64,000 bases of DNA from NCBI RefSeq assembly GCF_022768985.1, contig NZ_JALEKL010000003.1:1-64000 (forward strand), read 5' to 3'. The translations under genes and the position numbers were made by a program. Positions 5,328 to 55,938 of the stretch are shown here, in pieces (position 1 is the stretch's first letter; every line of letters starts with the position of its first letter). Under the pieces are notes generated by a model. It saw only the letters and a program-made list of their open reading frames with translations, did no database searches and was not told where the DNA came from. Source of the DNA: Methanosphaera sp. Its GTDB lineage: Archaea; Methanobacteriota; Methanobacteria; Methanobacteriales; Methanobacteriaceae.

Positions 5328-6824
5328 ATGTTTGATAAAGTATTAATTGCAAATCGTGGAGAAATTGCTATACGTGTAATGCGAGCATGTAAAGAGTTAG
5401 ATGTTAATACTGTAGCAATCCACTCAGATGAAGATGAAAAAGCATTATTTACAAAATTTGCAGATGAAGCAGTACCACTTAATTCATCAATTCTTGCAAA
5501 ATCATATCTTGATGTTGAAAAAATTATTAACATCGCAGTAGATACAGGTGCTGATGCTATACATCCAGGTTATGGATTCTTATCTGAAAATCCAACACTT
5601 GGTGAATTATGTGATGAAAATGGTATTACACTCATTGGTCCAAGAAAAAATGCAATTGAAGCAATGGGAGATAAAATTACATCAAAACAATTAATGAATA
5701 AAATTGGTGTACCTACAGTTCCTGGAGATAAGGAAGGAATTGAAGATGTTGATGTTGCAAAAAGCAGAGCAAGAGAAATTGGATATCCTGTAATTATCAA
5801 ATCCTCAGCTGGTGGTGGAGGAATTGGTATGAGAGTAGTTTATGAAGAAGATGAACTTGTTCGTGCAATTGAATCAACTCAGAATCTTGCAAAAACTACC
5901 TTTGGTGATGGAACAGTATATCTTGAAAAATATATTGAAAAACCAAGACACATAGAATTCCAGGTTCTTGCTGATAATTATGGAAATACAATACATGTAT
6001 GTGATCGTGAATGTTCAATTCAAAGAAGACATCAAAAACTTATAGAAGAAGCACCATCTCCTATTATGACTGAAGAATTAAGAGAACGTATGGGAGAATC
6101 TGCAATTAAAGCAGCAAAAAGTGTAGATTATAACAGTGCTGGTACTGTTGAATTTATGTATTCAAATGGTGAATATTATTTCCTTGAAATGAACACAAGA
6201 ATTCAGGTAGAACATCCAATTACAGAGGCAATTACTGGTGTAGATCTTGTAAAACAACAGATTAAAGTTGCATCTGGTGAAAAATTAGAATATACACAGG
6301 ATGATATTAATATAAATGGTCATGCTATTGAATGTCGTATCAATGCTGAAGATCCACTTAATGATTTCATACCAACACCTGGTAAAATCTTAGGTTACAG
6401 ATCACCTGGTGGTATTGGTGTACGTATGGATAGTGGTGTTTATAATGGTTATACTATTCCATCAATTTATGATTCTATGATTGCAAAACTTATTGTTCAT
6501 GCAAGAAATAGGGATGAAGCTATTGCTCGTATGCAACGTGCTCTTAATGAATTTATTGTTGTTGGTGTAAAAACTACAATTCCATTCCATAAGGCTTTAA
6601 TGAAAAATGAAAACTTCAGAAAAGCAAATCTTGATACAAGTTTCATTGAAGAAAACCAGATGGACTTAAGAACTGCTATTGAACAGGTAGTAGTTGAAGA
6701 TGAAGAAAAAATTAATCAGTATAAATCTACATTCCTTCCTAATAAGAAGATTGCAGCAATTTCAACTGGTGTTGCAAGTTACATGACAAGAATAATGGAA
6801 GAACAGGAAAAAGCTAAAAAATAG
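5328..6824 (+). CDS. pycA: Pyruvate carboxylase subunit A (biotin carboxylase)
   Basis: This codes for 498 residues with the biotin carboxylase fold: an N-terminal domain (KVLIANRGEIAIRVMRACKE), an ATP-grasp domain with the glycine-rich loop KSSAGGGGIGMRVV, the catalytic EMNTRIQVEHPITE near residue 287, and a C-terminal domain. It carboxylates biotin with ATP and bicarbonate for transfer to pyruvate, giving oxaloacetate for the incomplete reductive TCA path of methanogens. The length fits the stand-alone archaeal A subunit; the biotinylated B subunit is not in this window. GAAGGGAG precedes the ATG. An acetyl-CoA carboxylase role is unlikely in this lineage. Confidence 0.93.
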   Translation: MFDKVLIANRGEIAIRVMRACKELDVNTVAIHSDEDEKALFTKFADEAVPLNSSILAKSYLDVEKIINIAVDTGADAIHPGYGFLSENPTLGELCDENGITLIGPRKNAIEAMGDKITSKQLMNKIGVPTVPGDKEGIEDVDVAKSRAREIGYPVIIKSSAGGGGIGMRVVYEEDELVRAIESTQNLAKTTFGDGTVYLEKYIEKPRHIEFQVLADNYGNTIHVCDRECSIQRRHQKLIEEAPSPIMTEELRERMGESAIKAAKSVDYNSAGTVEFMYSNGEYYFLEMNTRIQVEHPITEAITGVDLVKQQIKVASGEKLEYTQDDININGHAIECRINAEDPLNDFIPTPGKILGYRSPGGIGVRMDSGVYNGYTIPSIYDSMIAKLIVHARNRDEAIARMQRALNEFIVVGVKTTIPFHKALMKNENFRKANLDTSFIEENQMDLRTAIEQVVVEDEEKINQYKSTFLPNKKIAAISTGVASYMTRIMEEQEKAKK

Positions 6825-7020
6825 TTTTATGAATTTTCCCTTCTTTTATTTTATTTTTTTAAATTATTAAGTCTTATTTTATTTATGAATCAATTTGGTT
6901 TTATTTTTTTTAGAAATAGGATAATTTAAGCAATATTTTTCACATTTTAAGAATTAATTTAATTATTTTTATTAAAAATAATTGATTTTACTCATTTTTT
7001 TTAGATTTATTATAGGTAAG

Positions 7021-7030
7021 TTTATATATA
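7021..7030 (+). promoter_or_regulatory. Candidate TATA box for the ribosomal protein supercluster
   Basis: TTTATATATA lies 86 bp before the first ATG of the cluster, which would give a leader of about 65 nt. A second TATA-like sequence (AATATATAAT, 7041-7050) is an alternative. The call rests on sequence resemblance only. Confidence 0.4.
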
Positions 7031-7115
7031 GTATAAAAACAATATATAATATAGTATTCCAAATGATACTATCTTTCCTTAAAATTTTAATATGTTTTAA
7101 AACATAAGAATCTTT

Positions 7116-7928
7116 ATGGAGAAAATTTCAATATTCGTACCAAATAGTTATTTGGCCGAATCAAAAGATTCGAAAATTAGAACATATAAAGTTGGATTAT
7201 TGGGAAGATATGCTGCTCTATATAGGGCTAATAACATAGTTATTTACAATGATAATTCAGACGGAGGTAGTAGAGATGATGCTCTCTATATGAAAACTAT
7301 CCTAGAATACATGGATACACCTCAATACTTGCGTAAACAAGTATTTCCGATTACACCGGAGCTGAAGAATGTAGGAATACTTCCACCACTTAGAACACCT
7401 CATCATCCATTAACAGTTGATGCTGAAGTTGGACAATACAGACAAGGTCTTACACTTAAACGTGTCCGTAAAGGAACTGTTGTAGATATTGGTCTGGAAA
7501 GAACAGCTTTATGTAAGGAAAAACTAAGTGTTAATAAAGTACATAGTTTTCGTATAGTAAAACTAGGTAAAGAAATTTTAGTAGAACCTGATGAACCTGA
7601 TAGCGTTTATTGGGGATATAAGACGATTACTAGTGACAGTAACCTCTATGACAGCATAACCATGATGGAACCTGACTTAGTTATTGGTACATCAAAATAT
7701 GCTCCTAACATTAATTCTATTCTTAATGAGGTTCAAGACAGTATTAAACAAGCATCTCATGTAGCTATTTTATTTGGAGGTCCATACTCTGGAATAAACA
7801 GCTTAATAAATGAGCGAAAGTTAGATTTTGAAATAAACACACTTCCTTGTCAAGGTACTGAAACAGTAAGAACCGAGGAAGCTTTAATTAGTACATTATC
7901 AATTCTAAATATTCTTAATCAGGATTAG
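7116..7928 (+). CDS. SPOUT-class RNA methyltransferase (MTH1 / C9orf114 family)
   Basis: This codes for 270 residues in the family of Methanothermobacter MTH1, a trefoil-knot SPOUT methyltransferase with a small OB-like insert. Seen are FVPNSYLAESKDSKIRTYKVG at the start, the PPLRTPHHPL segment near residue 90 and the C-terminal SAM-binding region ILFGGPYSGINSLI. Relatives methylate RNA, probably rRNA uridine N3; the target here is inferred. As in related methanogens it is the first gene before rpl3, 86 bp away, so it probably shares the operon and acts in ribosome maturation. Confidence 0.85.
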   Translation: MEKISIFVPNSYLAESKDSKIRTYKVGLLGRYAALYRANNIVIYNDNSDGGSRDDALYMKTILEYMDTPQYLRKQVFPITPELKNVGILPPLRTPHHPLTVDAEVGQYRQGLTLKRVRKGTVVDIGLERTALCKEKLSVNKVHSFRIVKLGKEILVEPDEPDSVYWGYKTITSDSNLYDSITMMEPDLVIGTSKYAPNINSILNEVQDSIKQASHVAILFGGPYSGINSLINERKLDFEINTLPCQGTETVRTEEALISTLSILNILNQD

Positions 7929-25160: not shown

Positions 25161-26132
25161 ATGGATTTAACAGATATTTTTAAGAAATCTTTAAAATTTC
25201 CATTTGAAAATCATTCAGTATGGATAATGGCAGCAGTTATTGCACTTGTTTCATCTATTTCATCACTTATTTCATTAAAATTTGATAATGGAATTGTTGT
25301 TATAGTATTTTCACTTCTTATGATGCTTGCATCTATTATAAGTTCAGGTTATTATTTGAAAGTTATTAAAAATCAGATAGATGGATCTGAAATTACAATT
25401 GATCTTGAAAATAAGAATTCAAATCCAATGACTGGAAGTAAAGCTGATCAACTTATTGGAAATATTAAAGATGATCTTATTAGTGGTATAAAATACTTAG
25501 TATTAGATGTAGTTTACATGTTTATTGCATTTATTATATTTGCAATTGTTGCATTTATTACTGGTGCATTTGATGCTTTTGCTAAAATTATTCCATACAT
25601 GGAAAATGTAGCAGCATTTGCAGATTCAACAGCATTTATAAATTCAATACCTGAGGATATTCTTATGAACTTTGCTGGTTCATTTATGATACTTTTCATT
25701 GTTGGAATTATTCTTTTAATATTATATTCATTATTATTATATATTGCAACAGCAAAACTTGCAGACACTGGTAGTTTAGGCGATGCATTAAATATTGTTG
25801 ATGTATGCAGAACAATTAAAGAAATTGAAATATTTAGATATCTTGGATTTTACGTGTTACTTACATTAATTACAGTTATTATTACGTTTATATCAGGCTT
25901 TATTGGTGAATTAATTCCAGTTGTTGGTACAATTATTTCTGTTGTTATTATTGATACATTTAGTAGTATATTTATATACACAGCTATTGGTACATTATAT
26001 GCTGAATATAGAAATAAACAACAACCACAATCACAACAGCCACAACAACCACAGCAAGTACAACAAGCACAGTATGATAATGATATTATTCAACAAGATG
26101 ATGATACAGTGTATTTTAACAACCAATACTAA
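25161..26132 (+). CDS. DUF4013 membrane protein 1, with glutamine-rich tail
   Basis: This codes for 323 residues. The body has the DUF4013 layout seen in all eight members here: a short N-terminal amphipathic helix (TDIFKKSLKFPFENHSVW), about six membrane helices, the YYLKVIKNQIDGSEI motif after helix 2 and ELIPVVGTIISVVIIDTFSS before the last helix. Uniquely, about 40 residues follow the last helix, rich in glutamine (QQPQSQQPQQPQQVQQAQ) and ending in an acidic stretch. Function is unknown. GGGAGGAA precedes the ATG. It opens the array. Confidence 0.8.
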   Translation: MDLTDIFKKSLKFPFENHSVWIMAAVIALVSSISSLISLKFDNGIVVIVFSLLMMLASIISSGYYLKVIKNQIDGSEITIDLENKNSNPMTGSKADQLIGNIKDDLISGIKYLVLDVVYMFIAFIIFAIVAFITGAFDAFAKIIPYMENVAAFADSTAFINSIPEDILMNFAGSFMILFIVGIILLILYSLLLYIATAKLADTGSLGDALNIVDVCRTIKEIEIFRYLGFYVLLTLITVIITFISGFIGELIPVVGTIISVVIIDTFSSIFIYTAIGTLYAEYRNKQQPQSQQPQQPQQVQQAQYDNDIIQQDDDTVYFNNQY

Positions 26133-26303
26133 AAATTAAATAATTTAACCACCATAATTCTTTTTTTATTTTTTTTTATAGAAGTATCCTAAATTTTTAG
26201 TAATCTTTCATACTCTTTTATTATACATAAAGTTTAAATACATAAAATCTAAAAATAAATAATCATAATTTTATATAATTTAATAAATAAGAGGTGAAAA
26301 AGT

Positions 26304-27128
26304 ATGGATGTAGCAGATATAATTAAGGATTCTTTGAAATTTTCATTAGATAATCCATTTATATGGGCAATGATGGCTGTATTATTCTTCATTACAAGTG
26401 TACTAACAGTGGTTTCAAATAATGTTGGAGAAGTAGGTCAGGCAATTATCTTAATTATCAACCTTATAGTTGAAGTTATAGTTATGGGATACTGTTTAAA
26501 GCTTGTAAGAAACCAAATTGATGGTTCTGAAGTTACAACTGTAAATGTTGTTGATCTTGCAACAAATGTTGTAGATGACTTCATAAATGGTATTAAATTA
26601 TTAATTGTAAATATTGTATACTTTATAATTCCTACAATTATCATAACAATTCTTGGATATCTTAGTGGTTCAATTGATAAAATATGCAACAGTATATTAT
26701 ATGTATCTGATGCTTTAGCAAAAGCTGGAGCTAGTGCAAATGTTGCAGATGTAATTAGCACTATGCCTGCTGATATGATGACAAATCTTCTTTCATCATT
26801 TGTATTTATTGCAGTAGTGGGAGTTGTACTTTTAGTAGTATTTGGATTACTTGATGCTATTGCATGTGCAAAGTTAGCTGAAACTGGTGATGTTTTAGCT
26901 TCATTAAACTTTATTGATGTAGCACATAAAATTGGTGATATAGGAGTTGTAAAATACTTTGTATTCATAGTACTTCTTGCTGTTATGTTAGTAATACTTG
27001 CATTAGTTTCTGGTATTGTTGAAATGATTCCAGGTGTAGGTAGTATACTTGCAGCAACAATAGTAACATCATTTACATCAGTATTTACATACGTTGCAAT
27101 AGGAAAATTATATGCTGATGCTTATTAG
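26304..27128 (+). CDS. DUF4013 membrane protein 2
   Basis: This codes for 274 residues with six predicted membrane helices and the family landmarks MDVADIIKDSLKFSLDNPF, YCLKLVRNQIDGSEVTT, CAKLAETGDVLASLNFIDV and EMIPGVGSILAATIVTSF. No catalytic motif is visible. AGAGGTGAAAAAG precedes the ATG. Its last 28 bp (27101-27128) reappear with one mismatch at 32159-32186, beyond the restriction-modification genes that separate it from the rest of the array. Confidence 0.8.
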   Translation: MDVADIIKDSLKFSLDNPFIWAMMAVLFFITSVLTVVSNNVGEVGQAIILIINLIVEVIVMGYCLKLVRNQIDGSEVTTVNVVDLATNVVDDFINGIKLLIVNIVYFIIPTIIITILGYLSGSIDKICNSILYVSDALAKAGASANVADVISTMPADMMTNLLSSFVFIAVVGVVLLVVFGLLDAIACAKLAETGDVLASLNFIDVAHKIGDIGVVKYFVFIVLLAVMLVILALVSGIVEMIPGVGSILAATIVTSFTSVFTYVAIGKLYADAY

Positions 27129-27333
27129 TGGTATAATTTTTCCTTTTACCTTTATTTTTTTTAAAACTAATTCTTTCTTATTTTTATATTATTTAAATTA
27201 TTCTCAGCAATCATATTCTTTTTTTAAAAAATTATCTATCCCTTCTATTTTTTTTTATATATTATTATAATGATAAATTACATAAATTAAAATAATATTA
27301 AAAAAATTTGATAAATTTAAAAGGGTGAACATT

Positions 27334-29145
27334 TTGGAGGAAATTAAATTAACAGGTGAAAGTAAAAATATTGTTTCAGATAATATTCAAAAACTTAAAG
27401 AAATATTTCCAGATATTTTCACAGAAAATAAAATTGATTTTGATAAATTAAAATGTAATTTAGGTGAATTTGTTGATGATTCAAAAGAAAAGTATAGTTT
27501 TACTTGGCCTGGTAAAACACAAGCTATTCGTGAATCACAAAAACAATCAACAGGAACATTAAGACCATGTGAAGAAGAATCTAAAGATTGGGATACAACA
27601 CAAAATTTATATATTGAAGGAGATAATCTAGAAGTTCTCAAATTACTTCAAAAAAGTTATAATAATAAAATAAAAATGATTTATATTGATCCTCCATATA
27701 ATACAGGTAATGAATTTGTTTATATGGATAATTATGATGATAATCTGGATAATTACTTAAAATTAACATCTCAAATTAAGGACAGGAATAAAGTATCTAC
27801 AAATACTGAAACTATGGGTCGTTTTCATTCAAATTGGCTTAATATGATGTATCCTCGTTTAAAATTAGCGAGAAACTTATTGTCTGATGAAGGAATTATA
27901 TTTATAAGTATAGATGATAACGAAAAAGATAATCTTAAAAAAATATGTGATGAAATTTTTGGTGAAGATAATTTTATTACTACAATATGTCAAAAATCCC
28001 GAGGAGGAATTTCAAATGATAAAATAATTTCCGAAAATCATAATTATCAACTATTTTATGCAAAAAACAAGTCAATTATACATGAAACAAGATCAGAATA
28101 TGGTGTTAAAAAGACTGAAGATGATTTTAAACGTTTCAATAAAGATGATAATGATGGTAAAGGACCTTACTCTTTAAATCCAGTAAGTGGTCCTGGTGGT
28201 GCAAGAAAAGGTAATCCATATTATAATTTTTTAGGAGTTGAAGGTTATTTTAGATTTTCTGAAAAAACTATGACTAAATTATATAATGAGGGAAAAGTTA
28301 TCAAAAAAAATAATAATTTATATCAAAAAACTTATTTGTCTGATTTAAAAGATAAAGTAAAAAAAATAAGCACGTGGTGGGATGAAGCTGGAACAACAAG
28401 TAGTGGAACTAAATTAATAAAACAATTATTCCCTGAAGTTAATGACTCAATTTTTGATCATCCTAAACCTATTGAACTTATTGAATTAATGATTGAATAT
28501 TGTAATTTTAAAGAAAATGATATAGTCTTAGATTTCTTTTCCGGATCGTCTACAACAGCACATGCAGTTATCAAAGCTAATTCTAATGAAAATAAGAATT
28601 ATAAATTTATAATGGTTCAAATACCAGAACCAACTGATAAAAAAACAGAAGCATATAAAGAAGGGTATATGGATATTTGTGAAATTGCAAAGGAACGTAT
28701 CAGAAGAGCTGGTGAGAAAATTATTGAAGAATCTGGAAATGAAGATTTAGATATTGGTTTTAAAGTTTTCAAACTTGATTCTTCTAATTTAGAAAAATGG
28801 GATCCTGATTATAATAATATTCAAAAATCTTTAATTATTGACCAAATCAAAGAAGGAAGATCTGATAAAGACTTAATTTATGAAATAATGATAAAATATG
28901 GAATTGAATTAACATATCCAATTGAACAATATGGTAAAATTTATTCAGTTGGTTCGGGTGAATTAATAATATGTCTTGATGATAATATAACTAAAGAAAT
29001 TGCTTATGATGTTATTAATTTAACTAAAAATGATTCAATATCACGAGTTGTTTTTAAAGACAGCGGATTTGCTTCTGATGCAATTAAAACTAATATTAAA
29101 GAAATATTAAAAACCAATAATATTGATGAGTTCATAACAATATAA
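27334..29145 (+). CDS. mod: Type III restriction-modification methyltransferase (Mod), TTG start
   Basis: This codes for about 603 residues of a beta-class N6-adenine methyltransferase. Motif IV (IDPPYNTGNEF, about 119-128) precedes motif I (DFFSGSSTTAHAV, from about 400), and the target recognition region lies between them. It methylates one strand of an asymmetric site and forms the complex with Res encoded 17 bp downstream. AAGGGTGA sits before the TTG at 27334; a GTG at 27325 within that site is the alternative. It interrupts the DUF4013 array, suggesting acquisition. Confidence 0.92.
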   Translation: MEEIKLTGESKNIVSDNIQKLKEIFPDIFTENKIDFDKLKCNLGEFVDDSKEKYSFTWPGKTQAIRESQKQSTGTLRPCEEESKDWDTTQNLYIEGDNLEVLKLLQKSYNNKIKMIYIDPPYNTGNEFVYMDNYDDNLDNYLKLTSQIKDRNKVSTNTETMGRFHSNWLNMMYPRLKLARNLLSDEGIIFISIDDNEKDNLKKICDEIFGEDNFITTICQKSRGGISNDKIISENHNYQLFYAKNKSIIHETRSEYGVKKTEDDFKRFNKDDNDGKGPYSLNPVSGPGGARKGNPYYNFLGVEGYFRFSEKTMTKLYNEGKVIKKNNNLYQKTYLSDLKDKVKKISTWWDEAGTTSSGTKLIKQLFPEVNDSIFDHPKPIELIELMIEYCNFKENDIVLDFFSGSSTTAHAVIKANSNENKNYKFIMVQIPEPTDKKTEAYKEGYMDICEIAKERIRRAGEKIIEESGNEDLDIGFKVFKLDSSNLEKWDPDYNNIQKSLIIDQIKEGRSDKDLIYEIMIKYGIELTYPIEQYGKIYSVGSGELIICLDDNITKEIAYDVINLTKNDSISRVVFKDSGFASDAIKTNIKEILKTNNIDEFITI

Positions 29146-29162
29146 AAAAAAGGGGGATAATA

Positions 29163-32075
29163 ATGAAGTTTAAATTTGATTCTAATCTTGATTATCAAAC
29201 CGAAGCTGTAGATGCAGTTGTTGACCTATTTAAAGGTCAAAATTCCATGCATCAATATTTTAATGTTTCAAATATATTTACTTTATATTCAAGACAAGGT
29301 ATTGGAAATAAAATTGATATTTCAAATGAAGATATCTTAGAAAACTTAAGGAGAGTACAATCTTATCATAAACTAGCCCCTTCTGAAACACTTCCAAGTT
29401 TAGATTTTAATATTGAAATGGAAACAGGTACTGGTAAAACCTATGTTTATCTTAAAACAATTTTCGAACTAAATAAAAAATATAATTTTACAAAATTTAT
29501 TATTGTTGTTCCAAATATCGCTATTAAAGAAGGAGTTAATAAAACCCTTGAAATTACAAAAGAACACTTTAAAGGATTATATAATAATGTTATCTATGAC
29601 TATTTTATTTATGATTCATCTAAATTAGAACAGGTGCGTAAATTTGTAGTTAGTTCTAATATTCAAATAATGATAATTAATATAGATGCTTTTAATAAAA
29701 GTTTTAAGGATCCTTCTAAGGAAAATAAAGCAAATATTATTCACAGGGAACAAGATAAATTAAATGGATATAAACCTATTGATTTAATTGCTAAAACTAA
29801 TCCAGTTGTTATTATTGATGAACCTCAATCAGTTATGGGCGGTAAAGGTGAAAAAGCTGTTTCATCCTTAAATCCACTGTGTACATTAAGATATTCTGCA
29901 ACACATAAAGAAATACAAAATCTTATTTATAAACTTGATGCAGTTGATGCATCTGAAATGGAACTTGTAAAACAGATCGAAGTAGCAAGTTTAGTATCTG
30001 AAGGTCAACACAATAAAGCATATGTGGAATTAATTTCAACTAATAATAAACCAGGTTCTCCAATATCAGCAAAGATTAAAATTGATGCTAATGTAGGAGG
30101 TTCTATAAAAAGAAAAACAGTTAATGTAAGAAAAGGAAATGATTTATCAGAACTAAGTAAACGAGAAATTTATAATAGTTATATTGTTAGTGAAATTAGT
30201 TGTGAAGAAGGAAATGAATTTATTAAATTTAGTCCAATAGATGAAAAATTAATAAAAGGTCAAATTATTGGAGATTTTGATGATTTGACAATTAAAAGAG
30301 CACAAATTCGTAAAACAATTGAAGAACACTTAGATAAAGAACTTAGATTTGCAAGAGCTGGTAAAAAGATTAAAGTATTAAGTTTGTTCTTTATTGATAG
30401 TGTGGATAAATATCGTAAATATAATCCTGATAATACATGGTCTAATGGAATTTATGCAGATATATTTGAAGAAGAATATAAAAAACTTGTAAAGAAACAT
30501 AAATATTCAACATTATATAATTACCTAGATTTAGATATTGATTTAGATTTAGAAGCTCATGAAGTTCATAAAGGATATTTCTCACAAGATCGTAAGGGAA
30601 AAAATAAAGATAAATTTAAAGAAACAAAAACTGGAAAGGCAGATGCTGATAATTATGCATATGAATTAATCATGAAAGATAAAGAAAAACTTTTAAGTTT
30701 TGATACTAAATTAAAATTTATTTTTTCACATTCTGCTTTAAGAGAAGGATGGGATAATCCAAATGTCTTCCAAATTTGTACATTAAATGAAACTAAATCA
30801 ACTATGAAAAAACGTCAAGAAATTGGTCGAGGTTTAAGACTTTGTGTAAACCAAGATGGTGAACGTGTTCATGATAAAACAGTAAATACATTAACTATTA
30901 TGGCTAATGAGTCTTATGAAGAATTTGCACATAATCTTCAAAAAGAAATTGCAGATGAAACTGGAATTAAATTTGGCATAATTGAAAAAGATGCGTTTGC
31001 ACATATTCATAGGATAAATAAAAAAGGAAATAAAGAGCCACTAGGAAAACAATACTCACAATTAATTTTCAATCACTTTAAACTTAAAAAATATGTTGAC
31101 TCAAAAGGTAAAATACAAGATGCACTTAAAGTTGCTGTAAGAGATAATACTGTTGATGTACCTGATGAATATGAAGATATTAAAGAAGAGATTGTTAAAG
31201 TTGTTGAAAAATCAACCAAAGGTCTTAAAATACAAAATGCTGCTACTAAACGTCGTCAAGTTAAACTTAAAGAAAGTGTATTTGATAATGAAGAATTTAA
31301 ATTATTATGGGATAAAATTAAACATAAAACAACATATTCTGTTGACTATGACACTGATGAACTAGTTTCAAAAGCAATAAAAGTAATGAAAGAAAAGTTA
31401 GATATACAACCTCCAAAATTAATTTATACCAAAAGTGGTTTAACTATTGAATCATCTGGAGTTAATTGTGATAAAAATGGATTTATAACTTCAGAAATAT
31501 ATGAAGATGAAGAAATAGCTCTTCCAGATATTGTCAAATATTTACAAAATGAAACAGATTTAACTAGAAGGACAATTGTTAGAATATTAAAAGATAGTGA
31601 AACTTTAGATCAATTTAAGATAAATCCTCAAGAATACATGCAACAAACTGCAAAATTAATTAATAAAGTCTTGGGTGAGTTAATTGTTGATGGTATCAAA
31701 TATACAAAAACAGGTGAATCTTATTCACAGGAGTTATTCAAAAATGAAGAATTATTTGGATATCTAGAAAAAAATCTTGTTAAAACTGAGCATTCTGTTT
31801 ATGATTATATTATCTATGATAGTGAAGTTGAAAAATGTTTTGCTGAGAGATTAGATCATGATCCTGAAGTTAAATTCTTTGCTAAACTTCCAGGATGGTT
31901 TAAAATAAAAACACCAGTTGGTAATTATAATCCTGATTGGGCAGTGATGTTAGGTGAAGAAGGTGAGGAAAAAATGTATTTTGTTGTTGAAACAAAAGGA
32001 ACAATTGAATACTTAGGAAATAGACCTTTAGAATCTGATAAAATTAAATGTGGTAAAAACACTTTGAGGCATTAG
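29163..32075 (+). CDS. res: Type III restriction enzyme Res subunit, 3' end frameshifted
   Basis: This codes for 970 residues. The SF2 helicase core has Walker A (GTGKT near 89-93), DEPQ (219-222) and QEIGRGLRL; a C-terminal PD-(D/E)xK nuclease has PDW near 924-926 and E943-T-K945. With Mod it translocates and cuts DNA. After KIKCGK the reading frame slips and ends with NTLRH. Restoring one A in the A5 run near 32055-32059 gives KKHFEALDNDIKF and a natural end at 32134 (about 990 residues). The catalytic parts are intact, so activity is possible. The GGGGGAT site precedes the ATG. Confidence 0.9.
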   Translation: MKFKFDSNLDYQTEAVDAVVDLFKGQNSMHQYFNVSNIFTLYSRQGIGNKIDISNEDILENLRRVQSYHKLAPSETLPSLDFNIEMETGTGKTYVYLKTIFELNKKYNFTKFIIVVPNIAIKEGVNKTLEITKEHFKGLYNNVIYDYFIYDSSKLEQVRKFVVSSNIQIMIINIDAFNKSFKDPSKENKANIIHREQDKLNGYKPIDLIAKTNPVVIIDEPQSVMGGKGEKAVSSLNPLCTLRYSATHKEIQNLIYKLDAVDASEMELVKQIEVASLVSEGQHNKAYVELISTNNKPGSPISAKIKIDANVGGSIKRKTVNVRKGNDLSELSKREIYNSYIVSEISCEEGNEFIKFSPIDEKLIKGQIIGDFDDLTIKRAQIRKTIEEHLDKELRFARAGKKIKVLSLFFIDSVDKYRKYNPDNTWSNGIYADIFEEEYKKLVKKHKYSTLYNYLDLDIDLDLEAHEVHKGYFSQDRKGKNKDKFKETKTGKADADNYAYELIMKDKEKLLSFDTKLKFIFSHSALREGWDNPNVFQICTLNETKSTMKKRQEIGRGLRLCVNQDGERVHDKTVNTLTIMANESYEEFAHNLQKEIADETGIKFGIIEKDAFAHIHRINKKGNKEPLGKQYSQLIFNHFKLKKYVDSKGKIQDALKVAVRDNTVDVPDEYEDIKEEIVKVVEKSTKGLKIQNAATKRRQVKLKESVFDNEEFKLLWDKIKHKTTYSVDYDTDELVSKAIKVMKEKLDIQPPKLIYTKSGLTIESSGVNCDKNGFITSEIYEDEEIALPDIVKYLQNETDLTRRTIVRILKDSETLDQFKINPQEYMQQTAKLINKVLGELIVDGIKYTKTGESYSQELFKNEELFGYLEKNLVKTEHSVYDYIIYDSEVEKCFAERLDHDPEVKFFAKLPGWFKIKTPVGNYNPDWAVMLGEEGEEKMYFVVETKGTIEYLGNRPLESDKIKCGKNTLRH

Positions 32076-32158
32076 ATAATGATATTAAATTCACCGAATC
32101 TGATTCATATGAAAACTTTAAAAAGAAAATATAATTATTAGGTTAATATAGATTAATT

Positions 32159-32186
32159 AGGAAAATTATATGCTGATGATTATTAG
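32159..32186 (+). repeat. 28-bp copy of the DUF4013 gene-2 end
   Basis: This matches the last 28 bp of the gene ending at 27128 (AGGAAAATTATATGCTGATG then TTATTAG) except for one base (A for C). The two copies flank the mod-res module in direct orientation. It may be an insertion footprint or the remnant of a lost DUF4013 copy. Confidence 0.7.
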
Positions 32187-32604
32187 TATAAAAAATGAAA
32201 GGAGAAGGAGCAGATAAATATTAAAGACCCTTAACCAACATTATTTAATGATCGATATCTGATAAATTTAATTATATGATTTTAAATCCACCTTATAATT
32301 GTAATTAGAAAAAAAAAAGATAAATAAGAAGTTGTTGCTGAAGTAGAACTTAGATTTAATGGAATATTATGGGCAGAATTACCTGGTATAAATAATGGAT
32401 AGTTACCCATAGAAAATAGAACATAATTCAAAAGAGACTGTATCAGTAATATTTGATAAATTATTAGATAAACAGTTAGTAAATATTTTCCAAAGTAATA
32501 AGAAATTTTACAATAAGATAAACACTAATCAAGAATTTAAAAAAACATTAGAATATGATTCAGTAGATCTTTTGTATGAAGAAGGGAGAACAGGTCTAAT
32601 ATGA
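32187..32604 (+). pseudogene. Decayed type I restriction-modification remnants (hsdM- and hsdR-like)
   Basis: No intact frame exists here, but fragments read like type I R-M proteins. DKFNYMILNPPYN (about 32259-32300) contains the NPPY motif of N6-adenine methyltransferases, with TLFNDRY just upstream in another frame. A 55-codon open stretch ending at 32604 (FDKLLDKQLVNIF, FYNKINTNQEFKKTLEYD) resembles the extreme C-terminus of HsdR. Several stops and frameshifts separate the pieces. The final stop overlaps the next ATG. Assignment is by eye and moderate in certainty. Confidence 0.5.
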
Positions 32605-33173
32605 TTAATAAAGATAATCTAGTTAAAATCATTTTAAATAATATTGTTGAAGGAGCCATATCTTTTATAATTGGACTAATTCCATTTTTATATGCATATT
32701 TTAGTTCAATATTTAATAATATGACTTTTTATGAGTATTTAAAAAGCATATCATGGTATATTTATATTATCTTTTTTATTCCATTCATTGCAATGCTAAT
32801 TATTGTAGTAATAAAATCAAAAATGAAAGAAGGTACATTACCATTTCGAATTGTTCATTGTGGTTTTACTACTATATGTAGATATAATTATAATGGATTA
32901 TGTTGGGATATAAGTATTTCATCAGATTATGATGATCATCCTTCATTATATCAAATTCTTAATCATTTCAATGTGGAAGATACACCCCGATGTCCAAAAT
33001 GTGGAACAAAACTTGAATATTCAAAACATTTATTATGGTATACTTGGAATTGTATAGAATGTAATTTTAAATATAGAACTTGGAATTCCCATCAAAAAAT
33101 GGTTAAAAGAGTCAAATATTTATTTGAAAGAAAATTAGAAAAAGAATTAGAAGAAAGATACAATGATAATTAA
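32601..33173 (+). CDS. Two-helix membrane protein with C-terminal zinc ribbon
   Basis: This codes for 190 residues that I cannot name. Two membrane helices lie at about 16-36 and 48-70, followed by a soluble part with one zinc ribbon (CPKC-16 residues-CIEC, about 133-156) and a charged helical end (KYLFERKLEKELEERY). The ATG overlaps the stop of the decayed hsdR-like stretch by 4 bp (ATGA), with AGGT upstream, so it was once the tail gene of that operon. A role in restriction or DNA defence is therefore possible but unproven. Confidence 0.65.
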   Translation: MINKDNLVKIILNNIVEGAISFIIGLIPFLYAYFSSIFNNMTFYEYLKSISWYIYIIFFIPFIAMLIIVVIKSKMKEGTLPFRIVHCGFTTICRYNYNGLCWDISISSDYDDHPSLYQILNHFNVEDTPRCPKCGTKLEYSKHLLWYTWNCIECNFKYRTWNSHQKMVKRVKYLFERKLEKELEERYNDN

Positions 33174-33323
33174 TCTATTTACTATCTTTAAAAAAATAGT
33201 TTGTATTTTCCTATTTTTATGTTCTCTTATAAGTTTTATTCTAGATTAAAATTGTAACTAAAAGTATTTATTAAAAAGTACATATCTATAAGTAATATAA
33301 ATTTAAAAGGGGTGAAAAAGACA

Positions 33324-34148
33324 ATGGATATAGTAGATATTATTAAAGATTCACTACAATACCCAGTAGATAACTACGTTGAATGGATCATGATGGCAAT
33401 ATTATTCTTTGTATCATCACTTGTTTCAGTAGTAATTGGAAGTAGTGCAGATAATGCAGTAGTGGGAGTAATCTTTTCAGTTATTAGCTTAGTTATATTA
33501 CTCATAACAGAAGGTTATGCTTTAAAATTTGCTAAAAAACAGATCGTAGGATCAGAAGTTACATCACTTGATATGAATGAACTTCCAACAAACCTTGTAG
33601 CAGATCTTATTAACGGTTTCAAATTAGCAGTTATTGGTTTAGTATACTTACTTGTATATGGAATAATCATGGCAATTATATCATACCTACTTGGATTCTT
33701 TGATAAAGTTACACAATTTTCATCATACTTTATTAATGCATACCAAGCAAATCCAGCTGCATTTAATATAAACGCTGTAATTAACACTATACCTACAGAT
33801 GTTTTAGCAAATGTTATGACAGCATCATTTATAGTAGCAGTTATTGGAGTTATTCTTATAATAATTACAGCAGTTATTTCATATGTTGCTATTGGTAGAT
33901 TTGCAGAAACAGATTCAATAGTTGCAGCATTAAATGTTCCTGAAGTATGCAAAAAAATATCAGAAATTGGTATTGGTAAATTTGTAGTATTTTGTATAAT
34001 CTTTATTATTGTATTGATAATTCTCGATATTATTAGTGGTATCGTAGCATTAATTCCTGCAGTAGGTAATATTATTGCAGCAACAATTGTAGAATCATTC
34101 ATTATGATGTTTGTATATGTTGCTTTAGGTAAAATTTATACAGAATAA
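33324..34148 (+). CDS. DUF4013 membrane protein 3
   Basis: This codes for 274 residues. The family pattern is clear: MDIVDIIKDSLQYPVDNYVEW, YALKFAKKQIVGSEVTSL, NLVADLINGFKLAVIGLVYL and ALIPAVGNIIAATIVESF, with six membrane helices. The ATG at 33324 follows AGGGGTGAAAAAG; an in-frame GTG at 33312 lies inside that site. It is the first member after the R-M interruption. The long open frame on its complementary strand is a by-product of AT-rich hydrophobic codons. Confidence 0.8.
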   Translation: MDIVDIIKDSLQYPVDNYVEWIMMAILFFVSSLVSVVIGSSADNAVVGVIFSVISLVILLITEGYALKFAKKQIVGSEVTSLDMNELPTNLVADLINGFKLAVIGLVYLLVYGIIMAIISYLLGFFDKVTQFSSYFINAYQANPAAFNINAVINTIPTDVLANVMTASFIVAVIGVILIIITAVISYVAIGRFAETDSIVAALNVPEVCKKISEIGIGKFVVFCIIFIIVLIILDIISGIVALIPAVGNIIAATIVESFIMMFVYVALGKIYTE

Positions 34149-34164
34149 ATAAACTAATAATATA

Positions 34165-34192
34165 AACCTTCCCTTTTTTTTATTTTTTTTTT
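34165..34192 (+). terminator. C/T-rich 3' end of DUF4013 gene 3
   Basis: AACCTTCCC is followed by T7 and T10 tracts. The same pattern recurs after another member at 37084, suggesting that each gene in the array ends its own transcript. Confidence 0.5.
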
Positions 34193-34344
34193 AAATTATT
34201 AAACTCAAAATTCCTTATTTTTTCTATGAAAGTTTCCTCATACCTATTATTTTAGAAATTTTCCATTTTAATATTGTAAACTATTAAATATTTTAAGTAA
34301 TATAATATATTAATTGATTTAATGATATGGAGGTGAAATAATAG

Positions 34345-35166
34345 ATGGGATTGTCAAATATAATTAATGATTCTTTAAAGTTTCCATTTAAAAATCCTAA
34401 AATATTACTTGTTGATGCAATGCTGAGTTTTATTAATTCATTACTTATTGCATATACTATGAAAACTGATGATATATTACAATTTTTCATATTTTTAATT
34501 TTAACATTGATTGCAACATTTGTAATTAAGGGATTTGCATTAAAGATATTAAAACATCATATTGTTGGTGAAAGTCTAACTGTAACACTTAAAACTTTAC
34601 CTGCAATGATTCTTGAGGACTTTGTTGATGGTATTAAAATTACAATTGTCAGAGTATTTTATAATATTGTGCCGGCTGTAATTGTTATAGTGGTAGGATT
34701 TATAACAGGAACATTTGAAAAGCTTTTCATATTCCTAGGTTATCTTGATGATGCAATAAATTTAACAACTAATGCTGTAACTATTTCATCTATATTTAAT
34801 TCAATACCATCAGATGTTACATCATCTCTTATATCTTCACTCTTTGTTTTATGTGCACTGGCAGCTTTATTGTATATTCTTTTTAACTTACTTACCTATG
34901 CTGCATATGGAGTTCTTGCACAGACTGGAAGTATTAGAGAGGCAATTAAAATTAGAGATGTGCATTCTAGAATATCATCTATTGGTTGGATGAAATACTT
35001 TGGATTTTGGATATTTTCATCACTTACTCTTATTGTTCTTGGAGTTGTTGGTGAGCTTTTATCAAAAATTCCAGTAGTAGGTGTAATTATTGGGGCAACA
35101 GTTTTTGAAACTTTTATTGTTATATTTACATATACAGCTATTGGAATGGTATATACAGATAATTGA
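34345..35166 (+). CDS. DUF4013 membrane protein 4 (divergent member)
   Basis: This codes for 273 residues with the same six-helix layout but the most divergent sequence of the set: MGLSNIINDSLKFPFKNPKIL at the N-terminus, FALKILKHHIVGESLTVTL in place of the KxQIxGSE motif, and KIPVVGVIIGATVFETF near the end. The regulatory-looking loop TGSIREAIKIRDVHSRISSIGWMKYF is kept. GGAGGTGAAATAA precedes the ATG. Function is unknown. Confidence 0.78.
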   Translation: MGLSNIINDSLKFPFKNPKILLVDAMLSFINSLLIAYTMKTDDILQFFIFLILTLIATFVIKGFALKILKHHIVGESLTVTLKTLPAMILEDFVDGIKITIVRVFYNIVPAVIVIVVGFITGTFEKLFIFLGYLDDAINLTTNAVTISSIFNSIPSDVTSSLISSLFVLCALAALLYILFNLLTYAAYGVLAQTGSIREAIKIRDVHSRISSIGWMKYFGFWIFSSLTLIVLGVVGELLSKIPVVGVIIGATVFETFIVIFTYTAIGMVYTDN

Positions 35167-35342
35167 AAAATATAATTCTCCCCCCTCACCATCTTTTTTT
35201 TTATTTTATTCTAATTTTTCTAAATGGACTTGTTTTTTTTTGGGAGATAATTTATAAAACATATATTACATGATTATTTAAAAAAATATTAACTAGAAAG
35301 GGATTTATAATTTAAAAATTTAAAGGAGGAAGATTAAAAATC

Positions 35343-36140
35343 ATGAATTTAGTAGGTTTATTTAAAAAATCATTAAAATATCCGGCAGACAACTACAAAG
35401 TATGGATAATTGTTGCAATTTTATGTTTTTTATCATCATTGCTTGATATAGTATCTAAAGTTACAACAAATATGATATTATCATCTATTATTGCATTAAT
35501 GTCATTTATTATAACGCTTATGATTGCAGGTTTTTGTTTGAAAGTTCTTAAAAGTCAAATTAATGGATCTGAAATTAAAGTGGCAACTAAAGATAAATTA
35601 ATTGGAAATCTTAAAGATGATTTTATCTGTGGTTTAAAAGTTTTAGTTGTTGAAATGGTATACTTCCTTATTTTTGCAGTAGTAGTTGCTATAATTTCAT
35701 ATATTACAGGGGCAGAAGGTAGTGTTATAAGTTTTATATCACAACTTCTCATTACAGCAGATATTAGATTGATTCCAACAAGCTTATTTGATGAATTTTT
35801 CACATCAGCAATACTTATAGTGGTAATTAGTTTAATTTTTGCAATTATATTATATGTATTTACTACAATTGCAACAGCAAAACTTGCAGAAACTGGAAAA
35901 ATATTAGATGCATTTGATATAAAATCTATACTTAGTAGAATTTCATCAATTGGATGGGGAGGATATATTTCATATCTTCTACTACTTTTATGTGTAGGTG
36001 TTGTTATTGGTCTTATCTTCATAGTTATGGGTTCAATACCATATGTTGGAAATATTGCAGCAGATACTATTGTTAAATCATTTATGTTGATATTTACTAA
36101 TGTATCAATTGCTAAAATTTACACATATAATAATGAGTAG
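35343..36140 (+). CDS. DUF4013 membrane protein 5
   Basis: This codes for 265 residues: MNLVGLFKKSLKYPADNYKVW, FCLKVLKSQINGSEIKV, TAKLAETGKILDAFDIKSI and SIPYVGNIAADTIVKSF. Six membrane helices are predicted by eye. AAAGGAGGAAGA precedes the ATG. It is closest in sequence to members 6 and 8 (shared LSRISSIGWG segment), which suggests recent duplication within the array. Confidence 0.8.
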   Translation: MNLVGLFKKSLKYPADNYKVWIIVAILCFLSSLLDIVSKVTTNMILSSIIALMSFIITLMIAGFCLKVLKSQINGSEIKVATKDKLIGNLKDDFICGLKVLVVEMVYFLIFAVVVAIISYITGAEGSVISFISQLLITADIRLIPTSLFDEFFTSAILIVVISLIFAIILYVFTTIATAKLAETGKILDAFDIKSILSRISSIGWGGYISYLLLLLCVGVVIGLIFIVMGSIPYVGNIAADTIVKSFMLIFTNVSIAKIYTYNNE

Positions 36141-36216
36141 ATTTTTTTATCTTGATCTTCTCTTTTTTTATTCTTTTTTTTTAATATGGCTATTTTTATT
36201 ATCTAAACTTATATGA

Positions 36217-36237
36217 ATAACTTATTATAAATTAACT
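36217..36237 (+). promoter_or_regulatory. Shared 21-bp promoter element, copy 1
   Basis: This 21-bp sequence (ATAACTTATTATAAATTAAC plus T) is identical to that at 38221-38241 and ends 33 bp before the ATG in both cases. It contains the TATA-like TTATAAATTAA. Flanking bases differ, so the match is not simply a recent block duplication. Confidence 0.55.
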
Positions 36238-36270
36238 CTAAACACACAAACTATAATGGGGTGAAAAAGT

Positions 36271-37062
36271 ATGGATTTAGTAGATTTATTTAAGGATTCA
36301 TTAAGATATCCGGCAGAAAATCGTATGGCATGGCTTATGATTATGGTAATTTGTTTTGTTAATTCAATATTTTCTATGGCTTTAGCATCAATTGAAGATA
36401 ATATTGTTGTAACAGTAATTGTTTCAATCATAGTACTTATTGTATCTTTAGTATGTGCGGGTTTTTCTCTTAAAGTTATAAGAAGTCAAATTGATAATAC
36501 AGAAGTTACAACAAATGACATGACACAATTACCTGAAAATATTACATCAGATCTAGTAGGTGGAATAAAAGTTGCAGTTGTTGAAATAGTATATTCACTT
36601 GTTGCATTTGCAATTACATTTATATTCACATATCTTTCAGGATCATGGGATAAAATTATAAGTTTCATAAGTCAACTTCTTGCTGTTGGAAATGTTGATG
36701 TTATCCCAACAAGTCAAATTGTTAGCTTTGCATATTCTATGATATTTGTTGTATTTGTTGGAGTAATTCTTGCAATTATTGTATATTTACTACAAACAAC
36801 ATCTATAGTAAAACTTGCAGAAACTGGAAGTATAATGGATGCTCTTAATATTAAAGATGTATTATCCAGAATTTCAACAGTTGGATGGGGAAGATACATT
36901 ATATTCATGGTACTTCTTGCAATTATACTATTTGTTGCTGTAATTGTACTTGGTATTGTTTCTATGATTCCATATGTTGGTGGAATTATTGCAGATACAA
37001 TCGTTGGATCATACATAATTCTTATGATGTATGCATCTATTGGTAAATTATTTGCAAACTAG
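36271..37062 (+). CDS. DUF4013 membrane protein 6
   Basis: This codes for 263 residues: MDLVDLFKDSLRYPAENRMAW, FSLKVIRSQIDNTEVTT, VKLAETGSIMDALNIKDV, SRISTVGWGRYI and MIPYVGGIIADTIVGSY. Likely helices lie at about 20-40, 44-66, 100-120, 150-172, 212-235 and 240-260. The acidic loop after helix 2 (TTNDMTQLPENITSDLVGG) is conserved across the set. GGGGTGAAAAAG precedes the ATG, and a 21-bp promoter-like element is shared with member 8. Confidence 0.8.
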   Translation: MDLVDLFKDSLRYPAENRMAWLMIMVICFVNSIFSMALASIEDNIVVTVIVSIIVLIVSLVCAGFSLKVIRSQIDNTEVTTNDMTQLPENITSDLVGGIKVAVVEIVYSLVAFAITFIFTYLSGSWDKIISFISQLLAVGNVDVIPTSQIVSFAYSMIFVVFVGVILAIIVYLLQTTSIVKLAETGSIMDALNIKDVLSRISTVGWGRYIIFMVLLAIILFVAVIVLGIVSMIPYVGGIIADTIVGSYIILMMYASIGKLFAN

Positions 37063-37083
37063 AATATGAAAAAAAAATTATTT

Positions 37084-37115
37084 AACCTTCCCTTTTTTTT
37101 ATTTTTCTTTTTTTT
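37084..37115 (+). terminator. C/T-rich 3' end of DUF4013 gene 6
   Basis: AACCTTCCC is followed by T8, ATTTTTC and T8, nearly the same arrangement as after DUF4013 gene 3. Confidence 0.5.
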
Positions 37116-37262
37116 ACCCGGGCTTATTTTCATTATTTAAAAAATTATATCAATTAGTTAGGATAAAAACAATATTTTATATGTAAATCTAATTTTTTTT
37201 AATGGGAAATTAATATTATAAACAAAAAAATAATTTTATTAGGAGTGTTTGGTGATGATTTT

Positions 37263-38066
37263 ATGCTAAATATAGAGGGTAGTTTAGATTTATTTAAGGA
37301 TTCATTAAGATATCCAATAGAAAATCCAAAAGTTTGGCTAAGTTTTATTATTCTATTTTTTATAACAACAATTTTTAGTTTAACAGTATTTTCAACTATA
37401 GATAATACACCTTTATTTGTAATATTTGGTATCTTATTTATTGTTATGTCTGTTATAACACTTGGTTTTAGTATGAAGATTATAAGAAATCAAATATATG
37501 GATCTGATGTAATAGTAGATGATATGGATGAAATTCCATCAAATATTAAGGATGATTTTATTGAAGGAATCGAGGCAGTAGTAGTTGAAGTTATATATCT
37601 GGTTATTCCTGCCATGTTTTTATTTATCCTAACATATATTACAGGTTTATTTGACTGGATTGTTAATTTTACAATACAACTTCTTATGAGTAGTGGTATT
37701 GATGGTGTAGTATTTAGTCAACTTAGTAGTTTTATTCATACATTAATATCTATAGTATTTTGTGGTGTTGCTGTTGAATCTGTAATGTTTCTAATTTCAA
37801 CAATTGCTATTGCAAAACATGCAGCAGATGAAAGTATGATGAGTGCATTAAATATCAGGGGTATTCTTTCAAAAATTTCATCAATTGGATGGGATGAATA
37901 TGTAGTGTATCTAATTTTACTTATACTAACAATATCAGTTCTTAATATTATACTCACTATTGTTTGTATGATTCCATATGTTGGTAAGGTTATTTCATTT
38001 ACAATGGTAGGATCATATATCTTAATTGTTACTAATGTATCACTTGGGAAAATTTATACACAGTAA
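37263..38066 (+). CDS. DUF4013 membrane protein 7
   Basis: This codes for 267 residues: SLDLFKDSLRYPIENPKVW, FSMKIIRNQIYGSDVIV, DMDEIPSNIKDDFIEGIEA, LNIRGILSKISSIGWDEYV and MIPYVGKVISFTMVGSY. The usual AKLAETG segment has changed to AKHAADESMM. I start at the ATG at 37263, preceded by GGTGATG; an in-frame GTG at 37245 would add MFGDDF. Function is unknown. Confidence 0.78.
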   Translation: MLNIEGSLDLFKDSLRYPIENPKVWLSFIILFFITTIFSLTVFSTIDNTPLFVIFGILFIVMSVITLGFSMKIIRNQIYGSDVIVDDMDEIPSNIKDDFIEGIEAVVVEVIYLVIPAMFLFILTYITGLFDWIVNFTIQLLMSSGIDGVVFSQLSSFIHTLISIVFCGVAVESVMFLISTIAIAKHAADESMMSALNIRGILSKISSIGWDEYVVYLILLILTISVLNIILTIVCMIPYVGKVISFTMVGSYILIVTNVSLGKIYTQ

Positions 38067-38220
38067 TAATTCACTTAATCTTCTTTTTTCTTTTTTTTAA
38101 GAGCTTTAATTTAGCAGTATTTCAATATTTTATCTTATTTTTTAAAATATCACTTTCATTTATGTTTTTTATTGTATGAATTTTTATTCATATGTTTATT
38201 TTATTAACTAAACTATAATA

Positions 38221-38241
38221 ATAACTTATTATAAATTAACT
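38221..38241 (+). promoter_or_regulatory. Shared 21-bp promoter element, copy 2
   Basis: This is identical over 21 bp to the element at 36217-36237, with the same 33-bp distance to the ATG. It includes a TATA-like TTATAAATTAA core. Confidence 0.55.
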
Positions 38242-38274
38242 TTATCAAATCTAATTTTAATGAGGTGAAAAGAT

Positions 38275-39093
38275 ATGGATTTAGTAGATATGATTAAGGA
38301 CTCATTAAGATATCCAACAGAAAATTATATGACATGGGCAGTACTTGCTGTAATATGTTTCATAATAAGTATATGTTCACTAGCACAATACTCAGTAAAT
38401 AACTCTATAGTATCAGCTGTAATGTCAATTATAGTAATACTTGTAACATTTATTGAACTTGGATATTGTCTTAAACTTACAAAAAGTCAAATTAATGGTC
38501 CTGAAGTAACAGTAAAGAAAATGGATGAACTTCCAGAAGTAATTAAAAATGAATTTATAGATGGTATAAAATTAACAGTAGTGGCAATAGTATACATGAT
38601 TGTACCTGCAATTATATTTGCAATTCTTGCATTCCTTACAGGTGCATGGAGTAAAATTAGTGTATTTGTAGGATATTTTACAAATGCAGGAATTAATGCA
38701 GTTATGTCAAATCCTGAAGCTGTTGTAAATGCAATTCCTAACGCTGTAATTGTAGACTTTGCATCATCTGCAATGTTCCTTACAATTCTTGGTGTAATTC
38801 TTATGATTGTATTTACATTACTTCTTGAAATTGCAACAGCTAAACTTGCAGAAACAGGAAGTATAACAGATGCAATTAACTTCAAAGTTGTAGTTGAAAA
38901 AATATCATCAATTGGATGGGGAAGATACATTGTATATGCAATTATAATGGCTATTCTTGGAATTGTTTGTTTTATCATTCAATTAATTGTAAGTATGATT
39001 CCAGCAGTTGGTCCTATAGTTTCAGATACAATTGTAGTATCATTCTATATAATGTTTTCATCTATTGCACTTGGTAAACTTTGTGCATACTAA
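38275..39093 (+). CDS. DUF4013 membrane protein 8
   Basis: This codes for 272 residues, the last of the array: MDLVDMIKDSLRYPTENYMTW, YCLKLTKSQINGPEVTV, DELPEVIKNEFIDGIKL, TAKLAETGSITDAINFKVV, SSIGWGRYI and MIPAVGPIVSDTIVVSF. Six membrane helices are likely. GAGGTGAAAAGAT precedes the ATG. It carries the same upstream 21-bp element as member 6, which implies joint control. Confidence 0.8.
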   Translation: MDLVDMIKDSLRYPTENYMTWAVLAVICFIISICSLAQYSVNNSIVSAVMSIIVILVTFIELGYCLKLTKSQINGPEVTVKKMDELPEVIKNEFIDGIKLTVVAIVYMIVPAIIFAILAFLTGAWSKISVFVGYFTNAGINAVMSNPEAVVNAIPNAVIVDFASSAMFLTILGVILMIVFTLLLEIATAKLAETGSITDAINFKVVVEKISSIGWGRYIVYAIIMAILGIVCFIIQLIVSMIPAVGPIVSDTIVVSFYIMFSSIALGKLCAY

Positions 39094-55173: not shown

Positions 55174-55938
55174 ATGAATAAGTATGTGAGTTTTATTAGT
55201 GATGAAGATTTTTTAGATGCTGTTGAATTTGTTGTTAAATCATACATAGTGGAAAATTCTGTGAAAATGATTGAAGATGAATTAAAACATGGAAAAAATA
55301 CTACTGATTTTATTAAATTAATCTTTGATGTATATACAAAACAAATATCACTTCAAGGATGGTTAGATTCTGAAATTAACAGACAAAAAGATAAATCACG
55401 AAATAATAAGATTGGTGAATTCCATCAAAAAGTATTGGGAAAGGTTCCAGGATGGCAAGATTTAAAGATTGGAAGTCCATATGGTGTTGATCTTAAAAAT
55501 GATGATAACACTGTATTTATTGAATTGAAAAATAAGTTTAATACTTTAAATTCTTCTTCATCTTTAGCAACAATGTTAAAACTTGAAAATATTATTCATG
55601 AACATCCTAATGCTAAGGCTTATATTTGTTATATTGTTGAGAAGAAATATAAATCAAAAGATAAAATATGGCATGTGAAAGAAAATAGGGAAAATTCAGA
55701 TGGAAGTAAAGTTACAATTGATCATTGTAATGAAAATATAAAATTAGTTAGTGGATATAAGGTGTATGAACTTGTAACAGGTGATAGAACTGCACTTAAA
55801 CAGGTATATGAAGCACTTCCTTTGGCAATAAATGATGTTTTAAAAAATAAATATGATCTTCCTGATTTTAAATTATCAAAAAGTGATCAGGAAATCTTAG
55901 ATAGTTATGGTGATTATGTTTTTAATTATGATGACTAA
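55174..55938 (+). CDS. Type II restriction endonuclease, Eco47II family
   Basis: This codes for 254 residues resembling the Eco47II/Sau96I family (PF09553), which cuts GGWCC or GGNCC sites. The nuclease centre reads as PYGVDLKNDDNTVFIELKNK, with Asp106, Glu117 and Lys119 in a PD-(D/E)xK arrangement. GAAGGAATTT precedes the ATG. It converges on its partner methyltransferase, and the two 3' ends overlap by 4 bp. The exact site specificity is inferred. Confidence 0.85.
   Translation: MNKYVSFISDEDFLDAVEFVVKSYIVENSVKMIEDELKHGKNTTDFIKLIFDVYTKQISLQGWLDSEINRQKDKSRNNKIGEFHQKVLGKVPGWQDLKIGSPYGVDLKNDDNTVFIELKNKFNTLNSSSSLATMLKLENIIHEHPNAKAYICYIVEKKYKSKDKIWHVKENRENSDGSKVTIDHCNENIKLVSGYKVYELVTGDRTALKQVYEALPLAINDVLKNKYDLPDFKLSKSDQEILDSYGDYVFNYDD

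What the first reader, a model, noticed from the sequence alone, without database searches (positions are those of the whole stretch)
27101..32186. Type III R-M module flanked by a 28-bp direct repeat from a DUF4013 gene end
The last 28 bp of DUF4013 gene 2 (27101-27128) recur at 32159-32186 with one mismatch, just after res. This brackets mod-res exactly and is much longer than a usual target duplication. It points to insertion by recombination at the gene end, which regenerated the terminus, or to loss of another DUF4013 copy that once stood beyond res.
Basis: partly seen in the sequence, partly recalled or inferred. Interest (0 to 1): 0.65.

Follow-up and report, generated by a model that had tools for sequence, protein, structure and literature searches.

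The report
Restriction-system graveyard between DUF4013 genes
A 30-base copy of one gene's end lies beside a DNA-restriction system in a gut methanogen, but it most likely marks a scar where an older, decayed restriction system was cut away rather than the edge of a mobile element, so the case is fairly ordinary.

Summary
The repeat is real. It is 30 bp long (27100-27129 and 32158-32187, 29/30 identical), not due to chance, and found nowhere else in its genome or in 19 congeners. The stated refuter (a common DUF4013 3' end) fails.

It does not bracket mod-res exactly, and it is not the border of the inserted DNA. All eight DUF4013 genes of this Methanosphaera-type genome form one array, broken only between genes 2 and 3. 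The break holds mod-res, then a decayed Type I R-M system (hsdM fragment 32195-32399 fused to the hsdR 3' end 32409-32550), then a zinc-ribbon gene. A congener has an intact version in the same order. The right copy is therefore internal, 1.1 kb from DUF4013 gene 3, and touches the broken end of hsdM. DUF4013 gene 2 keeps its own T-rich terminator after the left copy; the right copy has none.

Best reading: the right copy is a short DUF4013-2-derived patch at the junction left when the Type I remnant met res. [quoted passage not shown] No conspecific genome was available, so the empty-site test could not be run. Interest is low.

The parts
25161..26132 (+). DUF4013 gene 1 of an 8-gene array
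   Evidence: Pfam PF13197 E=4.9e-15; all 8 genome copies lie here
26304..27128 (+). DUF4013 gene 2; its last bases are the source of the repeat (encodes the conserved tail ...IGKLYADAY*)
   Evidence: PF13197 E=1.3e-17; C-terminal GK(L/I)Y motif shared with paralogues
27100..27129 (+). left copy of the 30-bp repeat (native end of DUF4013-2)
27130..27324 (+). DUF4013-2 terminator-like T-rich tract, then the mod leader; no hsdM N-terminal remnant; weak, unproven likeness to the tail of a DUF4391 gene just before mod
27325..29145 (+). mod, Type III DNA methyltransferase (606 aa, DPPYN motif), appears intact
   Evidence: PADLOC MTase_III E=9e-201; PF01555
29163..32134 (+). res, Type III restriction subunit; the ORF ends at 32075 after a frameshift near 32060, and homology to congener Res ends at 32134
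   Evidence: PADLOC REase_III E=0; PF19778 and PF04851; alignment to L041 ends at the Res stop
32158..32187 (+). right copy of the 30-bp repeat, 29/30 identical, at the junction between res and the hsdM remnant
32195..32399 (+). hsdM pseudogene fragment (NPPY region) with several frameshifts and stops
   Evidence: frameshift-tolerant alignment score 87-123 to 10 HsdM proteins, shuffled maximum 36
32409..32550 (+). hsdR 3'-end remnant
   Evidence: alignment score 99 vs shuffled maximum 58; tblastx E about 1e-8
32601..33173 (+). zinc-ribbon membrane protein, 190 aa; its only congener homologue lies downstream of an intact Type I R-M system
33312..34148 (+). DUF4013 gene 3; the array resumes here
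   Evidence: PF13197 E=2e-15

Best explanation
The DUF4013 array of a Methanosphaera-type archaeon is interrupted between genes 2 and 3 by an R-M region built and eroded in steps. It holds a Type III mod-res pair, then the stump of a Type I hsdM-hsdS-hsdR operon, then the zinc-ribbon gene that accompanied it. The right copy of the 30-bp sequence is a patch copied from the nearby end of DUF4013-2. It lies at the break junction where the front of hsdM was lost and the remainder was joined to the DNA behind res, by template switching, short ectopic gene conversion or filler synthesis during repair. Shown: the repeat, its DUF4013 origin, its position at the hsdM breakpoint, and its internal position in the island. 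Inferred: that copying happened during repair, and the order of events.
For: The repeated stretch encodes the conserved DUF4013 tail, so DUF4013-2 is the source. Similarity stops sharply at both ends. Secure hsdM homology starts 7 nt right of the copy, at about codon 270, with the hsdM front missing. DUF4013-2 keeps a terminator after the left copy; the right copy has none. The right copy is 1.1 kb inside the island, separated from DUF4013-3 by hsdM, hsdR and zinc-ribbon DNA in the same order as in the intact congener locus. No integrase is nearby. A congener carries a Type I system in the same L14e-to-cbf5 interval, so turnover of R-M genes here is plausible.
Against: No ancestor or sister strain was available, so the repair event is inferred. 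A 30-bp templated patch is unusual in itself. Whether hsdM homology also continues to the left of the copy could not be settled (DNA test in register p about 0.05, protein gain 7/100 shuffles). T-rich terminators are common, so the one after DUF4013-2 could have come with the insert.
Confidence: 0.45

Rival explanations
1. mod-res entered as one unit at the end of DUF4013-2 with a 30-bp target duplication (the 'insertion with long target duplication' described for R-M genes), or by crossover of a circular molecule sharing those 30 bp.
For: A direct repeat of 29/30 flanks a complete-looking mod-res pair. Long variable target duplications are reported for R-M insertions (PMC3874152, PMC3031569, PMC1643837). 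The 30-mer is unique to this genome.
Against: DNA beyond the right copy is hsdM remnant, not native DUF4013-2 flank, so DUF4013-2's stop would first have had to fuse to the middle of hsdM. DUF4013-2's terminator is on the wrong side. No integrase or transposase lies in the bracket. Published duplications are of order 100 bp.
Confidence: 0.25
2. The right copy is the last scrap of a lost duplicate of DUF4013-2 that once stood between res and the Type I system.
For: DUF4013 genes are duplicated in tandem here (8 copies), and the scrap ends at the stop codon.
Against: No DUF4013 similarity lies left of the 30 bp and no shared 3' flank beyond 1 bp. It needs two independent deletions, each ending within a few bases of a 30-bp remnant. 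Other paralogues differ far more from DUF4013-2 in this stretch.
Confidence: 0.2
3. Chance similarity or an assembly error.
For: AT-rich, low-GC region in a draft assembly of 15 contigs.
Against: Expected number about 3e-5 in the window; zero in shuffles. The repeat is far shorter than typical misassembly repeats, and the two copies differ by one base.
Confidence: 0.05

Closest known systems
Insertion of R-M genes with long target duplication (Nobusato et al. 2000, as cited in PMC3874152, PMC3031569 and PMC1643837)
   Same: R-M genes lie between direct repeats derived from a neighbouring host gene; no integrase present.
   Different: Only 30 bp (reported order 100 bp); DNA beyond the right repeat is another R-M remnant, not the host flank; empty site not seen.
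Type III R-M systems of Methanosphaera (M. stadtmanae-sized genome G016, and G013)
   Same: Homologous mod-res pairs, about 67-71% DNA identity over res.
   Different: Those sit behind a helicase gene and a DUF4391 gene, which are absent here; they are not beside DUF4013 genes.
Type I R-M locus of G018 (hsdM-hsdS-hsdR-Schlafen/AlbA_2-zinc ribbon)
   Same: Order hsdM ... hsdR ... zinc-ribbon gene matches the remnant order right of the repeat.
   Different: In the window hsdM and hsdR are fragments, and hsdS and the AlbA_2 gene are gone.

Membership tests
Type III restriction-modification system | adjacent mod methyltransferase with DPPY-type motif | tested here: met
   PADLOC MTase_III 9e-201, PF01555 2.9e-30; DPPYNTGNEF and FSGSSTTAH in the translation
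Type III restriction-modification system | res with helicase motifs and PD-(D/E)xK endonuclease domain | tested here: met
   REase_III E=0, ResIII 4e-13, RE_endonuc 9e-33; the last ~20 aa are lost by a frameshift
Type III restriction-modification system | methylation and cleavage activity | not testable with these tools
   sequence only
Insertion with long target duplication | direct repeat at both ends of the R-M insert | tested here: met
   29/30 bp
Insertion with long target duplication | native host flank resumes immediately beyond the second repeat | tested here: not met
   hsdM/hsdR remnants and a zinc-ribbon gene follow, no terminator
Insertion with long target duplication | related strain with a single repeat and no R-M genes | not testable with these tools
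   no conspecific genome; no 28-mer in 19 congeners or in genome contigs
Integrase-mediated element at a gene 3' end | integrase gene within the bracketed DNA | tested here: not met
   PF00589 hits only at C9:396905 and C3:65366
Type I restriction-modification system (right-flank remnant) | intact hsdM, hsdS and hsdR | tested here: not met
   only an hsdM fragment of about 68 codons and an hsdR tail of about 47 codons, with frameshifts and stops; a pseudogene remnant, not a member

The most novel reading that the evidence does not exclude
Type III mod-res pairs in Methanosphaera may move as minimal units without an integrase, using about 30 bp of a host gene's end as the exchange site and leaving an exact terminal duplication that could allow later excision.
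Probability: 0.1. Interest if true: 0.5.

Novelty: new member of a known kind. Interest (0 to 1): 0.2.

Why it matters
It shows a recurrent R-M turnover site (the L14e-to-cbf5 interval) in a gut methanogen, with one system decayed behind another, and cautions that a direct repeat beside an R-M pair need not be an insertion footprint. If the insertion reading were true it would extend the Helicobacter-type R-M mobility pattern to a methanogen.

Tried and rejected
(1) The 28-mer as a common DUF4013 3' end: rejected, 2 matches in the own genome and none in 19 congeners at up to 3 mismatches, none in genome contigs or viral contigs.

(2) DUF4013-2 relatives through genome contigs: no confirmed locus.

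(3) hsdM homology running through and to the left of the right copy: first suggested by a frameshift-tolerant alignment starting at 32152, then found unproven; not claimed.

(4) A remnant of DUF4391 between DUF4013-2 and mod: DNA score beat 1000 shuffles, but 12 of 1930 other windows do as well and the protein test was at shuffle level; left as a lead.

(5) hsdM N-terminal DNA left of mod, which would have meant mod-res inserted into hsdM: not found.

(7) Pfam on the joined hsdM remnant gave no hit; direct alignment to HsdM relatives was needed.

Full report
OBSERVATION. The last 28 bases of the second DUF4013 gene (27101-27128) occur again at 32159-32186 with one mismatch. Extension gives 30 bp, 27100-27129 and 32158-32187, 29/30 identical, with no similarity outside. 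No shuffle of the window gives even one match; composition predicts about 3e-5 such pairs in the window and about 9e-9 matches to this 30-mer in the genome. It is the only pair of at least 24 bp (one mismatch or fewer) in the window that is neither DUF4013 against DUF4013 nor a T-rich terminator. It is not a common DUF4013 end: two matches in the own genome, both described here, and none in 19 congeners, and none in genome contigs or viral contigs.

WHERE IT LIES. The window belongs to a Methanosphaera-type genome of 1.61 Mb. One congener handle, G016, has a contig of 1,767,403 bp, the size I recall for M. stadtmanae; the genus name rests on that recollection. All eight DUF4013 genes of the genome form one array at 25.2-39.1 kb, between ribosomal protein genes plus cmk on the left and cbf5 on the right. 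Congeners carry zero to two DUF4013 genes in this interval. Neighbouring genes of the array are about 100-210 bp apart, except genes 2 and 3, which are 6.2 kb apart. The gap holds mod, res, a decayed stretch and a 190-aa zinc-ribbon protein.

MOD-RES. Mod and Res are ordinary Type III subunits (MTase_III 9e-201, REase_III E=0). The res ORF is frameshifted close to its end; similarity to the congener Res runs on in another frame to a stop at 32134. In G013 and G016 the homologous mod-res stands behind a helicase gene and a DUF4391 gene; neither is present here.

THE RIGHT FLANK. The region after the right copy is a broken Type I R-M operon. A frameshift-tolerant alignment places 32195-32399 on ten HsdM proteins with scores 87-123, against a shuffled maximum of 36. 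32409-32550 matches the HsdR C-terminus (score 99 against 58; tblastx about 1e-8). The zinc-ribbon gene that follows has a single congener homologue, in G018, which stands behind intact hsdM-hsdS-hsdR and a Schlafen/AlbA_2 gene. The order is the same, so the window holds a decayed relative of that locus. The first 270 or so codons of hsdM are missing, and the right copy ends 7 nt before the surviving hsdM begins.

WHY THIS IS NOT A SIMPLE FOOTPRINT. If mod-res had landed at the end of DUF4013-2 with duplication of its last 30 bp, native DUF4013-2 downstream sequence should follow the right copy. It follows the left copy instead: every DUF4013 gene, gene 2 included, has a run of at least 8 T within 60 nt of the stop, whereas the longest run behind the right copy is 3. 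The right copy is also 1.1 kb from the far end of the foreign region. Neither end is exact: 195 bp separate the left copy from mod, and 23 bp separate the ancestral res stop from the right copy. No integrase lies in or near the bracket. The 30-bp text encodes the conserved DUF4013 tail (GK[L/I]Y...), so DUF4013-2 is the source and the right copy the derivative.

BEST EXPLANATION. A short DUF4013-2-derived patch was left at the junction where the front of hsdM was deleted and the rest was joined behind res. This needs one event, and it explains why the copy touches the hsdM break. The copying mechanism (template switch, filler synthesis or short conversion) is inferred. Insertion with long target duplication, described for R-M genes (PMC3874152, PMC3031569, PMC1643837), remains possible if DUF4013-2 had earlier been fused to mid-hsdM. 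A scrap of a lost DUF4013 copy remains possible but needs two deletions ending on either side of 30 bp. Only another strain of the species can decide, and none was available.

LIMITS. I first thought hsdM homology ran through the right copy. Further tests did not establish that (in-register DNA p about 0.05; protein gain matched by 7 of 100 shuffles), and I do not claim it. A DUF4391 remnant before mod is likewise unproven.

VERDICT. The repeat is real; 'exact bracket' and 'insertion footprint' are not supported as stated. It is an eroded R-M region at a recurrent site, ordinary in kind.

Noticed in passing
window 25161-39093: All eight DUF4013 genes of the genome form a single tandem array; most congeners have zero to two at this place, so this is a lineage-specific expansion of membrane proteins.
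   Followed up: partly
L064 (G004:C11:1-14200): Another congener carries a Type I R-M system (HsdR, HsdM) in the same L14e-to-cbf5 interval, which suggests a recurrent site for defence genes.
   Followed up: partly
window 29163-32134: res is frameshifted in an A-run near its 3' end, so the product would lose about 20 residues; this could be decay, phase variation or a sequencing error.
   Followed up: no
window 32601-33173 and L068:905-1441: A zinc-ribbon protein with hydrophobic, membrane-like stretches accompanies a Type I R-M system in two species; no Pfam family reaches its cut-off; a possible accessory gene.
   Followed up: partly
window 55174-56948: An Eco47II-type restriction endonuclease gene next to a cytosine methyltransferase gene on the opposite strand.
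   Followed up: no
window 61281-63923 and G000:C3:65366-65833: A Type I HsdR gene with a tyrosine recombinase gene about 1.4 kb beyond it, perhaps an hsdS-switching locus.
   Followed up: no
L042 5186-8672 (G016): In the M. stadtmanae-sized genome the mod gene of the homologous Type III system is interrupted by a transposase-like ORF (6557-7831).
   Followed up: no
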